From the NCBI GenBank assembly GCA_017539565.1, contig JAFYCS010000029.1:1-41147 (forward strand): a stretch of 41,147 bases of DNA, given 5' to 3'. The notes beneath the pieces were generated by a model that worked only from the letters and a program-made list of their open reading frames with translations, was not told where the DNA came from and did no database searches. Each line of letters begins with the position of its first letter. Position 1 is the stretch's first letter. Positions 2,326 through 4,029 of this stretch are shown here, piece by piece. The position numbers and the translations under genes are program-made. Source of the stretch: Lachnospiraceae bacterium. Its GTDB lineage: Bacteria; Bacillota; Clostridia; Lachnospirales; Lachnospiraceae.

Positions 2326-3606
2326 ATGATAGACATCAAGTATCTCCGTGAGCATCCGGAGGAAGTAAAGGAAAATATCAAAAAGAAGTTTCAGGATGAG
2401 AAGCTGCCTCTGGTAGATGAGGTAATAGAGCTGGATAAGGAGCGCCGCGATGCGCAGAAAGAAGCGGACGAGTTAAAGGCCAGCCGCAACACCTTGTCAA
2501 AGCAGATCGGTGTGCTCATGAAGGAAGGCAAGAAGGAAGAGGCTGAAGAGGTCAAGAAGCAGGTTGCTGCAAATGCAGAGAAGCTTGCCCAGCTTGATGC
2601 AAAGCAGGCCGAGATGGAAGAGAAGGTTACCAAGATAATGATGGTGATCCCCAATATCATCGATCCTTCGGTGCCCATCGGTAAGGATGATTCCCAGAAT
2701 GTGGAGGTTCAGCGTTTTGGCGAGCCTGTGGTACCTGATTTCGAGATACCCTACCACACTGATATAATGGAAAAGTTAAAAGGTATCGACCTTGACAGTG
2801 CAAGACGTGTTGCAGGAAACGGTTTCTATTACCTTATGGGTGATATTGCCAGACTGCATTCAGCCGTTATAAGCTATGCAAGGGATTTCATGATCGACAG
2901 AGGCTTTACCTACTGCGTACCTCCTTTCATGATCCGTGCTAACGTAGTTACCGGCGTTATGAGTTTCGCTGAGATGGATGCCATGATGTATAAGATCGAA
3001 GGTGAAGACCTGTATCTTATCGGTACCAGCGAGCATTCCATGATAGGTAAGTTTATTGACCAGATAGTTCCCGAAGAGGAGCTTCCTTATACACTTACCA
3101 GCTATTCACCCTGCTTCCGTAAGGAAAAGGGCGCACATGGTCTGGAGGAGCGCGGCGTATATCGTATCCATCAGTTTGAAAAACAGGAGATGATAGTTGT
3201 CTGCAAGCCTGAAGAGAGTCCTATGTGGTTTGACAAACTGTGGCAGAATACTGTAGACTTATTCAGGAGCATGGATATACCCGTGCGTACCCTTGAGTGC
3301 TGCTCAGGCGATCTGGCAGATCTTAAGGTAAAGAGTGTGGATGTTGAGGCATGGAGCCCCCGTCAGAAGAAGTATTTCGAAGTGGGCAGCTGCTCCAATC
3401 TGGGCGATGCTCAGGCAAGAAGACTTAAGATCCGCGTAGACGGCAAAGACGGGAAGTACCTGGCACATACCCTTAACAATACCGTGGTTGCGCCTCCCCG
3501 TATGCTGATCGCATTCCTTGAGAACAACCTTCGTGAAGACGGCAGCGTTGCCATTCCCGAGGTACTCCGCCCTTACATGGGTGGCAAGACGGAGATAAGA
3601 CCGTAA
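2326..3606 (+). CDS. serS: Serine--tRNA ligase
   Basis: Class II aminoacyl-tRNA synthetase of 426 aa, the family's normal length. Residues 1-100 form the long antiparallel coiled-coil arm that grips the tRNA-Ser variable arm. The catalytic core has a TSEH motif (about 234-237), motif 2 with FRKEKGAHGLEERGVYR (about 265-281) and motif 3 HTLNNTVVAPPRML (about 385-398). Most bacterial SerRS read FRSEAGSAGRDTRGL in motif 2 and HTLNGSGLAVGRTL in motif 3, so this is a distinct SerRS subtype. The catalytic arginines of motifs 2 and 3 are kept, so it should be active. GAGGGA lies five bases before the ATG. Confidence 0.95.
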   Translation: MIDIKYLREHPEEVKENIKKKFQDEKLPLVDEVIELDKERRDAQKEADELKASRNTLSKQIGVLMKEGKKEEAEEVKKQVAANAEKLAQLDAKQAEMEEKVTKIMMVIPNIIDPSVPIGKDDSQNVEVQRFGEPVVPDFEIPYHTDIMEKLKGIDLDSARRVAGNGFYYLMGDIARLHSAVISYARDFMIDRGFTYCVPPFMIRANVVTGVMSFAEMDAMMYKIEGEDLYLIGTSEHSMIGKFIDQIVPEEELPYTLTSYSPCFRKEKGAHGLEERGVYRIHQFEKQEMIVVCKPEESPMWFDKLWQNTVDLFRSMDIPVRTLECCSGDLADLKVKSVDVEAWSPRQKKYFEVGSCSNLGDAQARRLKIRVDGKDGKYLAHTLNNTVVAPPRMLIAFLENNLREDGSVAIPEVLRPYMGGKTEIRP

Positions 3607-3694
3607 TCTTAAGGAGGGGCCCGCGCGAAGCGTGGGAAGATTCCTTAAGATATTCGCAAGGGGGGACCCACGAATGTGGGGGGATTCCTTGCGA
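3607..3694. repeat. Two tandem nested hairpins after serS
   Basis: Module A (3607-3650) has an outer 9-bp stem TCTTAAGGA/TCCTTAAGA and an inner 7-bp stem (3620-3626 with 3630-3636, one G-T) closed by a GAA loop. Module B (3654-3694) has an outer 8-bp stem TCGCAAGG/CCTTGCGA and an inner CCCAC/GTGGG stem with a GAAT loop. Outer stems differ in sequence but keep pairing, while the internal layout (G-run, CCC, GAA, GGG, GATTCCTT) is shared. This is a duplicated structured element. No T-run follows either module, so these are not standard terminators. Confidence 0.7.
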
Positions 3695-3728
3695 TGTAAA
3701 GCTTTAAGTACACTACGGAGTTCGACAC

Positions 3729-3742
3729 GTTCTCTTAGTTAA
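3729..3742 (+). repeat. 14-nt copy of the 5' end of tRNA-Arg(CCT)
   Basis: GTTCTCTTAGTTAA is identical to the first 14 bases of the tRNA gene at 3958-3971: acceptor 5' strand, positions 8-9, D-stem 5' strand and one loop base. The match ends there. The two copies are direct repeats 229 bases apart. It may be a tRNA remnant or an old attachment or recombination site; no integrase is nearby. Confidence 0.6.
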
Positions 3743-3767
3743 GTACCGCACTTTGAAATGTAAATAA

Positions 3768-3870
3768 CAGCCCGAAGCGTTCACCGCTGAGGGCGTACTG
3801 TAGAGGGATGCACAATGTCAGCGCGACAAAGTGTTCCTTCAGCCCGAAGCACCCCGCTGCTGAGGGCGTA
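3768..3870. repeat. Pair of similar hairpins with GA/GA internal loops
   Basis: Hairpin C (3770-3794) has GCCC/GGGC outer stem, facing GA and GA, then AGCG/CGCT with loop TTCAC. Hairpin D (3842-3867) has the same outer stem and GA/GA, then AGC/GCT with an 8-nt loop. The flanks CAGCCCGAAGC and GCTGAGGGCGTA are shared, with the variable part confined to the loop, and the copies are about 72 bases apart. An inverted pair CACTTTG (3749-3755) / CAAAGTG (3827-3833) encloses hairpin C. The shared facing GA steps would allow sheared G-A pairs if transcribed. Confidence 0.65.
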
Positions 3871-3897
3871 AGATAATGCTTGGCCAGCGATAGCGGG

Positions 3898-3960
3898 CCG
3901 CCCATCTGCGAAGCAGATTATGCATGGCGGACCGCAACCGAATGGCGAAGCCATGAGGTT
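3898..3960. repeat. Two GAA-loop hairpins abutting the tRNA gene
   Basis: Hairpin E has ATCTGC/GCAGAT (3904-3909, 3913-3918) with a GAA loop inside an outer CCGCC/GGCGG stem (3898-3902, 3926-3930). Hairpin F has AACC/GGTT (3936-3939, 3957-3960), facing GA and GA, then ATGGC/GCCAT with a GAA loop (3947-3949). F thus repeats the architecture of hairpin C and its 3' arm includes the first three bases of the tRNA. GCGAAGC, known as an unusually stable single-stranded DNA mini-hairpin, occurs at 3908 and 3945, and also at 3625 in the stretch after serS. Confidence 0.65.
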
Positions 3961-4029
3961 CTCTTAGTTAAATGGATATAACGGGTCCCTCCTAAGGACC
4001 AGTTGGGGGTTCGATTCCCTCAGGGAACA
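3958..4029 (+). tRNA. tRNA-Arg (anticodon CCT)
   Basis: A full cloverleaf can be drawn. Acceptor 3958-3964 pairs with 4022-4028 (one T-G). D-stem GTTA/TAAC encloses an 8-nt loop with GG. Anticodon stem GGTCC/GGACC encloses loop CTCCTAA with anticodon CCT at 3991-3993. A 4-nt variable region is followed by T-stem GGGGG/CCCTC and loop TTCGATT. The discriminator base is A4029. CCA is not encoded. CCT reads AGG, a codon used heavily in this window. The gene lies directly behind the hairpin-rich stretch 3607-3957; I found no clear promoter. Confidence 0.93.

What the first reader, a model, noticed from the sequence alone, without database searches (positions are those of the whole stretch)
3607..3960. 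Dense cluster of GAA-loop and GA/GA hairpins between serS and tRNA-Arg
At least six hairpins fill a 350-base gap with no gene. They fall into families: two nested modules after serS with differing outer stems but conserved layout, two near-copies with GCCC/GGGC stems and facing GA steps, and two GAA-loop stems next to the tRNA. The differing outer stems that still pair are a sign of selection on structure. GCGAAGC, an exceptionally stable DNA mini-hairpin, appears three times. This could be a structured RNA, a REP-type cluster, or a DNA secondary structure acting near the origin.
Basis: partly seen in the sequence, partly recalled or inferred. Interest (0 to 1): 0.7.

Follow-up and report, generated by a model that had tools for sequence, protein, structure and literature searches.

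The report
Stacked mobile hairpin repeats beside tRNA
The cluster of hairpins is real, but it looks like a pile-up of two families of short, gene-less mobile repeats, one of which has merged with the start of the neighbouring tRNA gene, not one dedicated RNA.

Summary
The hairpins at 3607-3957 are real and beyond chance (RNA fold z -4.8). The gap holds two dispersed repeats of unrelated sequence.

Element A (3607-3694) is two tandem copies of one module: outer stem, AGGGG/AAGAT-type internal loop, CCC..GGG stem. Model R1 finds 24 modules in this genome, ten of them its own training set, and hits in 13 of 35 genomes of the genus, own included. The three closest relatives have another sequence at this site. 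No direct repeat of 5 bp or more flanks A (0 of 30 copies). No transposase partner was found.

Element B (3840-3959, partial copy 3768-3837) is a decayed copy of a 145-bp miniature transposon with hits in 19 of 35 genomes. Intact copies end in GTAACTATTCAG/CTGAACAGTTAC; 7 of 13 bounded copies have exact 8-bp duplications. These ends resemble the ISBst12 group of IS66 (PMC12898284, passage). B is at this locus in six species. In three, its last hairpin uses the 5' end of tRNA-Arg(CCU) as one arm.

Covariation is strong, but template switching could also produce it.

The parts
2326..3606 (+). serS, seryl-tRNA synthetase; its TAA stop (3604-3606) abuts element A
   Evidence: ORF, Pfam tRNA-synt_2b and Seryl_tRNA_N
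3607..3694 (+). Element A: two tandem hairpin modules, at this site in this genome only among the relatives compared
   Evidence: BLAST copies in the own genome, R1 hits in 13 of 35 genomes, own included, absent at this site in G012, G028 and G032
3607..3650 (+). module m1: stem TCTTAAGG/CCTTAAGA, internal loop AGGGG/AAGAT, stem CCCGCGC/GCGTGGG with a G-U wobble, GAA loop
   Evidence: R1 56 bits, but m1 is in R1's training set; folds
3654..3694 (+). module m2: stem TCGCAAGG/CCTTGCGA, purine internal loop, stem CCCAC/GTGGG
   Evidence: R1 62.6 bits, but m2 is in R1's training set; folds
3695..3698 (+). TGTA, the 3' flank of A; also present in relatives that lack A here, so a likely target and not part of A
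3729..3742 (+). copy of the first 14 bases of the tRNA-Arg gene (28-bp version in G028)
   Evidence: relatives
3768..3837 (+). partial second copy of element B: first hairpin (P1) and remnant
   Evidence: R2 29.9 bits
3840..3959 (+). Element B, decayed copy of the 145-bp three-hairpin MITE
   Evidence: R2 66.4 bits; the window is not in R2's training set
3842..3867 (+). B hairpin P1: GCCC-GA-AGCA..TGCT-GA-GGGC, facing GA steps
   Evidence: alignments
3893..3935 (+). B hairpin P2: GCGGGCCGCC..TCTGC-GAA-GCAGA..GGCGGACCGC
3936..3960 (+). B hairpin P3, rebuilt: its 3' arm includes the first three bases of the tRNA
3958..4029 (+). tRNA-Arg(CCT)
   Evidence: ARAGORN, Rfam RF00005 61.7 bits

Best explanation
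The gap is a stack of non-coding mobile repeats of two families. Element B is a miniature inverted-repeat element moved in trans by a transposase of the ISBst12 group of the IS66 family: it is recognised at its GTAACTATTCAG-type ends and makes an 8-bp target duplication. A copy landed between serS and tRNA-Arg in the common ancestor of at least six species and decayed. Its last hairpin was rebuilt against the adjoining tRNA 5' end, probably by template switching between similar inverted repeats (inferred). Element A came later, directly after the serS stop codon, in the lineage of this species. It is a tandem pair of hairpins of one strand-specific type that spreads without a target duplication of 5 bp or more; I infer a single-strand (HUH-like) route for it, weakly. 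Dispersal of both families, and B's ends and target duplications, are shown at family level. The enzyme that acts in trans, the template switching and any effect on the tRNA are inferred.
For: A: R1 matches 24 modules in the own genome (E up to 0.004; ten are its training set; 150 of 1431 candidates scored, so a lower bound). It hits 12 of the 34 other genomes of the genus, with 1 to 33 matches each. BLAST, without a model, finds further copies in this genome, the best at E 7.7e-38. Another sequence fills the same place in G012, G028 and G032. For eight chosen loci of the sister family A', 0 of 16 alignable orthologous sites in these three genomes hold an intact copy; 5 could not be aligned. 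B: R2, trained on 12 copies from six genomes, hits 19 of 35 genomes at E 0.01, with 69 matches in G013. Among fetched loci, 12 of 13 copies with both ends are 144-146 bp; 7 of 13 have exact and 9 of 13 at least 7-of-8 target duplications. Counting rows on both strands, 17 of 25 against a shuffled mean of 0.7 and maximum of 6. Two IS66-family loci in G006 and one in G016 have paired ends close to GTTACTATTCACAG; at the only one with both flanks in hand the 8-bp repeat is exact (transposase). ISDge4 of the ISBst12 group has ends GTGACTACTCAGCA and GTAACTGCTCAGCA and an 8-bp direct repeat (PMC12898284, passage). R2 hits at the tRNA locus in G000, G012, G032, G028, G018 and G023.
Against: The window's own B copy has no recognisable termini and no 8-bp duplication. 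No IS66 transposase was found in this genome, and none of the IS66 loci examined has exactly B's ends. B-rich genomes G013, G020, G002 and G031 gave no homologue of the G006 transposase (incomplete assemblies). A: short shared words between its flanks exceed all shuffles (4.1 against 3.4, 0 of 1000), and still do slightly after collapsing related flanks (20 rows, 3.85 against 3.45, 19 of 1000), so a 3-4 bp duplication is not excluded. No A module lies in 30 Y1-transposase loci. Strand asymmetry (G-T against A-C: 29 to 3 in A, 34 to 4 in A', 26 to 6 in B) could also reflect an RNA-level constraint.
Confidence: 0.8

Rival explanations
1. The region is a dedicated structured RNA or tRNA-leader regulator: the B domain and its last hairpin sequester the 5' strand of tRNA-Arg(CCU) and so control its maturation.
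For: Domain kept at this locus in six species. In G028, G018 and G023 the leader pairs with the tRNA 5' strand with probability 1.00 and the acceptor stem with 0.00; folds of -56, -45 and -44 kcal/mol against -29, -32 and -30 for the separate parts. The leader arm matches the differing fifth tRNA base (T in G028, C in G018 and G023).
Against: In the window and G012 the pairing covers only three tRNA bases (acceptor 0.07, leader pairing 0.42; G032 has the same leader). G011, of the same genus, lacks the domain and folds normally with a 60-base leader (0.96; 0.56 with a shorter one). A low acceptor value is not special in this static calculation: it is 0.00 to 0.11 in six other tRNAs without B. 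The same domain occurs where no tRNA is found (0 tRNAs in 18 printed loci, some overlapping). Processing and modification are ignored.
Confidence: 0.1
2. Elements A and A' are REP/REPIN repeats moved by a RAYT (Y1) transposase.
For: Short intergenic hairpins, many copies, no flanking repeat of 5 bp or more, strand asymmetry. A Y1 gene is present in this genome and in 15 of 35 genomes.
Against: 0 of 30 Y1 loci (85 kb) hold an A module. The three Y1 loci that I printed are flanked by repeats of other sequence. G014, G016 and G030, rich in A, have no Y1 match.
Confidence: 0.15
3. A acts at the RNA level: a 3'-UTR or intercistronic hairpin that stabilises mRNA or supplies a ribosome-binding site (AAGGAGGGG).
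For: Several copies start at a stop codon (read by eye). In G032 a truncated A' end is followed at once by a start codon, AAGGAGGGGAAATGG. Fixed G-T wobble in 16 of 18 A' copies. For A the downstream gene is co-oriented in 19 of 26.
Against: Upstream genes of A are in both orientations (12 and 11 of 26, 3 undecided), and A' is mixed (downstream 12 and 10 of 22, crude ORF calls). Near relatives lack intact A' copies at the same gene pairs.
Confidence: 0.2
4. The apparent covariation is only mutational: template switching keeps palindromes perfect without selection.
For: Two-sided changes outnumber one-sided changes (111 to 27 cells in A, 204 to 24 in B; cells count sequences, not events). The tRNA-leader arms look freshly copied. 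The process is described for imperfect inverted repeats (PMC7202029 and PMC8604942, abstracts as listed).
Against: A purely double-strand process should leave G-T and A-C mismatches equally, but G-T is 8 to 10 times commoner in A and A' and about 4 times in B (related copies, so few independent events). Internal loops are conserved too.
Confidence: 0.35

Closest known systems
ISBst12 group of IS66 (ISDge4, Deinococcus geothermalis; PMC12898284, passages seen)
   Same: Ends GTGACTACTCAGCA/GTAACTGCTCAGCA against B's GTAACTATTCAGAA/GTAACTGTTCAGAA; 8-bp direct repeat; IS66 transposases with similar ends exist in the genus
   Different: B has no gene and is 145 bp with three internal hairpins; a transposase with exactly B's ends was not found
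Bacterial MITEs (RUP, NEMIS, Bcr1, ERIC and others; named in PMC3733652, passages seen)
   Same: Short, gene-less, terminal inverted repeats, strong folding, next to genes
   Different: ISBst12-type ends; I did not compare the sequences themselves
REP/REPIN elements with RAYT (PMC3733652 passages; PMC3116915 listing only)
   Same: A: short hairpin pairs, intergenic, many copies, no flanking repeat of 5 bp or more
   Different: A has two hairpins in the same orientation, no GTAG or CGTC tag seen, and no Y1 gene nearby in 30 Y1 loci
CCCTCTCCC/GGGAGAGGG palindromic repeats of Azospirillum plasmids
   Same: Contain the m1 core AGGGGCCCGCGCGAAGCGTGGGAAG, exact over 25-27 bases in 6 of 15 Azospirillum records
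   Different: In the two read the outer arms do not pair around the core as in A
Hairpin on plasmids of Natronomonas, Halorarius and Natribaculum
   Same: Outer stem, AGGGG/AAGTA internal loop, CCCGCGCGAAGCGCGGG, the same layout as m1
   Different: One copy per plasmid in four plasmids; relation unknown, may be convergence

Membership tests
ISBst12/IS66-type MITE (element B) | terminal inverted repeats of the ISBst12 type | tested here: met
   Family level: GTAACTATTCAG..CTGAACAGTTAC, up to two substitutions per end, in 13 bounded copies. Not recognisable in the window copy
ISBst12/IS66-type MITE (element B) | 8-bp target duplication | tested here: met
   Family level: exact in 7 of 13 bounded copies, 7 of 8 letters in 2 more, not in 4. 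Window copy: none seen
ISBst12/IS66-type MITE (element B) | no coding capacity | tested here: met
   145 bp, three hairpins
ISBst12/IS66-type MITE (element B) | cognate transposase in the same genome | tested here: not met
   0 PF03050 matches in G000 (draft, 120 contigs); 10 of 35 genomes of the genus have one
ISBst12/IS66-type MITE (element B) | transposase element with matching ends in the genus | tested here: inconclusive
   GTTACTATTCACAG-type ends at three IS66 loci in G006 and G016: close to B's ends, not identical
REP/REPIN with RAYT (element A) | linked Y1 (RAYT) gene | tested here: not met
   0 of 30 Y1 loci hold a module
REP/REPIN with RAYT (element A) | GTAG or CGTC tag at the hairpin foot | tested here: not met
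   Read by eye in the 30 copies: 5' flanks end in A in 27, no common tag
IS200/IS605-derived element (element A) | no target duplication | tested here: inconclusive
   0 of 30 copies have a flush repeat of 5 bp or more, but short shared words are slightly in excess
IS200/IS605-derived element (element A) | imperfect hairpins in the same orientation near both ends | tested here: met
IS200/IS605-derived element (element A) | fixed target next to the ends | tested here: inconclusive
   3' flank TGT in 26 of 30 and 5' flank A in 27 of 30, copies partly related; TGTA present at the A-less site in G012, G028 and G032
IS200/IS605-derived element (element A) | TnpA gene bounded by the same hairpins | tested here: not met
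Known RNA family | Rfam match at the gathering score | tested here: not met
   only tRNA

The most novel reading that the evidence does not exclude
A and A' belong to a wide class of recursive hairpin elements recognised, on one strand, through a purine-rich internal loop (AGGGG/AAGAT) around a CCC..GGG stem with a fixed wobble. The module can be set in tandem or nested in itself, moves without terminal repeats or a long target duplication, and uses the same core in Lachnospiraceae, Azospirillum and haloarchaeal plasmids, served by an enzyme not yet identified.
Probability: 0.12. Interest if true: 0.75.

Novelty: new member of a known kind. Interest (0 to 1): 0.42.

Why it matters
It shows how covarying hairpins in one gap, which look like a structured RNA, can be a pile-up of mobile repeats, and it gives simple tests to tell the two apart: orthologous sites, target duplications, and G-T against A-C counts. 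The B family offers a miniature relative of the ISBst12 group, whose transposition one paper calls reported for the first time in 2026 (PMC12898284, passage). The tRNA case is worth an experiment: in three species a transposon-derived hairpin is predicted to tie up the 5' half of tRNA-Arg(CCU), so either the cell resolves it or another gene does the work.

Tried and rejected
Rfam at gathering and relaxed thresholds found the tRNA and only hits below the gathering score. Viral contigs: none for the B core or for two A patterns; the m1 core pattern gave 4 stretches and a GGGAAGG-TGAGG variant 19. Both patterns hold part of the core in their own letters, so they do not test conservation of those letters. 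Phages: none. Outside the genus: over 80 serS neighbourhoods of the clade (655 kb, a few of the same genus) R1 hits one (L066) and R2 none. RAYT link: disfavoured for lack of any A module near Y1 genes. parS or origin role: no parS-like site. Counting tRNA-Arg(CCU) genes: my pattern demanded too long a gap and missed even the window's own tRNA, so that search says nothing. The G-U content of tRNA stems as a control failed (0 tRNAs parsed), so I have no RNA-helix yardstick. Literature: searches showed no paper on these repeats in the listings; this is no proof of absence, since the library lacks most subscription journals.

Caveats on counts: R1 and R2 scored 150 or 97 of several hundred to over two thousand first-look candidates per genome, so copy numbers are lower bounds; the weakest matches may be other palindromes. 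R1's ten training modules are all from this genome. Genome tallies include the own genome. Alignments A5 and A6 were fitted to their models and hold related copies. A6 has eight opposite-strand self-matches among its 47 rows. Loci overlap, so some rows are the same place (identical rows counted once). The 30 A and 23 A' copies were picked with a pattern. Orientation counts rest on crude ORF calls.

Full report
What is there. Between serS (ends 3606) and tRNA-Arg(CCT) (3958-4029) the + strand folds at -142 kcal/mol, better than all 100 shuffles. The gap has no ORF of 100 aa or more and no Rfam match.

Element A, 3607-3694. Two modules, m1 and m2, share one plan: an outer stem of eight pairs ending in AAGG/CCTT, a purine-rich internal loop, a CCC..GGG stem, and a small loop. 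BLAST with this stretch finds further copies in the same genome, the best at E 7.7e-38. A covariance model built from ten modules of this genome (R1) matches 24 modules in the genome, the ten included (E up to 0.004; 150 of 1431 candidates scored). At E 0.001 it matches 13 of 35 genomes of the genus, own included, with 1 to 33 matches in the other twelve; 22 genomes gave none. Some copies are tandem pairs like the window's (77-103 bp in 30 copies). A sister family, A', sets one module inside the loop of another (95 bp in 21 of 23 copies). Half and hybrid copies occur. Over 63 distinct modules 98.9% of cells pair and 9 of 13 pairs have two-sided changes; no shuffle of 500 reaches these values (alignment fitted to the model).

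Element A is recent here. In G012, G028 and G032, whose serS is 99% identical, the space from the same stop codon to the common TGTAAAGCTTTAAG holds another sequence, with a GA/GA palindrome of its own. I took eight A' loci of this genome and sought their orthologues in those three genomes: 16 sites could be aligned and 5 could not. None of the 16 carries an intact A'. Several hold other palindromes, several are short or empty, and one keeps a truncated A' end immediately before a start codon. Such turnover between near relatives fits mobile repeats better than a kept RNA gene.

Element B, 3840-3959, with a partial copy at 3768-3837. The GCCC/GGGC hairpin with facing GA steps is the first of three hairpins of a second family. 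An exact pattern hits 11 of 35 genomes. A model of the three hairpins, trained on 12 copies from six other genomes (R2), hits 19 of 35 at E 0.01, some of them weakly, and gives the window copy 66.4 bits. Intact copies are bounded by GTAACTATTCAG and CTGAACAGTTAC. Of 13 copies with both ends among the fetched loci, 12 are 144-146 bp (one is 198 bp), 7 have an exact 8-bp flanking repeat, 2 more match in 7 of 8, and 4 do not match. This is a transposon signature. The ends resemble those of ISDge4 of the ISBst12 group of IS66 (PMC12898284, passage). The 8-bp repeat is also reported for IS66 in Frankia (PMC11946415, passage). In the genus, IS66-family loci in G006 (two) and G016 (one) have paired GTTACTATTCACAG-type ends; only one has both flanks in hand, and its 8-bp repeat is exact. 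The two G006 elements have a single long ORF; one scores over NCBI's IS66 cut-off and the other under it (189 and 163.5 bits against 180), and both are over Pfam's. The window's genome has no IS66 match, and the B-rich G013, G020, G002 and G031 have no homologue of the G006 transposase. So in most genomes B is seen without its presumed enzyme. In G020 another B copy sits at the very end of serS in the opposite orientation and appears to supply its stop codon.

The tRNA junction. B lies at this locus in G000, G012, G032, G028, G018 and G023 and is absent there in G011, of the same genus, and in a Butyrivibrio MAG. In G028, G018 and G023 the last hairpin's 3' arm is the start of the tRNA: its first 12 bases in G018 and G023 and 19 of its first 20 in G028. 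Leader pairing with the tRNA 5' strand is 1.00 in these three; among the other 26 distinct tRNAs of the same call it is at most 0.61. Acceptor pairing is 0.00 in the three and 0.96 in G011 and in the Butyrivibrio MAG. But it is also 0.00 to 0.11 in six other tRNAs without B, one of them tRNA-Arg(CCT) of G021, so a low acceptor value alone means little in this static calculation. In the window only three tRNA bases are involved (acceptor 0.07, leader pairing 0.42). The tRNA start resembles B's end (GGTTCTCTTAGTTAA against GGTTCTGAACAGTTAC), which offers a start for template switching; this step is inference. The 14-base copy of the tRNA start at 3729 (28 bases in G028) is longer than B's 8-bp duplication and remains unexplained.

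Strand. G-T cells exceed A-C cells: 29 to 3 in A, 26 to 6 in B, 34 to 4 in A', where one G-T wobble is fixed in 16 of 18 copies. So one strand seems to matter, as RNA or as single-stranded DNA; copies are related, so independent events are fewer. On the other hand, two-sided changes outnumber one-sided ones, which suits template-switch correction. Covariation alone therefore does not prove a selected RNA.

What moves A is open. No copy of 30 has a flush direct repeat of 5 bp or more, though short shared words between its flanks are slightly in excess (3.85 against 3.45 after collapsing related flanks, 19 of 1000 shuffles); A' shows none (3.30 against 3.24). No A module lies in 30 Y1 loci. The 3' flank is TGT in 26 of 30, and TGTA is also present at the A-less site. 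I favour a single-strand route by analogy with IS200/IS605 (recalled), at low confidence.

A wider lead. The m1 core is found in palindromic repeats of Azospirillum plasmids, exact over 25 to 27 bases in 6 of 15 records. It also occurs with two mismatches on four haloarchaeal plasmids. In the two that I read, arms outside the matching stretch pair around an AGGGG/AAGTA loop as in m1. The m2 query and one made-up control gave nothing. E-values of 1e-4 to 1e-2 in GC-rich palindromes leave convergence possible.

Verdict. Observation confirmed; the REP-like option partly right.

Noticed in passing
3958-4029 and orthologues L198, L199, L200: In three congeners the leader of tRNA-Arg(CCU) forms a long hairpin with the first 12-20 bases of the tRNA and is predicted to block the cloverleaf.
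   Followed up: partly
3729-3742 and 3958-3971: The first 14 bases of the tRNA gene are repeated upstream (28 bases in G028), longer than B's 8-bp duplication; origin unexplained.
   Followed up: partly
L397, L398, L403, L404, L399-L402: The core of module m1 recurs in Azospirillum plasmid repeats, haloarchaeal plasmids and, with varied loops, viral contigs.
   Followed up: partly
L196-L198, L034, L038, L046: Other palindromes (such as AAGATCCTTCGCTTCGCTCAGGATGACA and TCATTCTGAGGGCGAAGCCCGAAGAATCTT) share the GA/GA plus GAA-loop design and often abut A' copies.
   Followed up: no
L345 (orthologue of L033) and L011: Truncated ends of A' or A (AAGGAGGGG, AAGGAGTGG) lie just before start codons, as if taken over as ribosome-binding sites.
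   Followed up: no
L207 (G020): A B element in reverse orientation begins exactly at the end of serS and its end GTAAC appears to provide the stop codon.
   Followed up: no
L376, L378, L388: RAYT-like Y1 genes flanked by their own repeats (GGTGCCGGGCACTTTGTAC, GGGGACGGTCC, GGGGTCAGGTACTGTGAAC types).
   Followed up: no
849-1760: parB, DUF4446 and serS in a row, so probably near the origin (recalled), yet no parS-like site in the window.
   Followed up: partly
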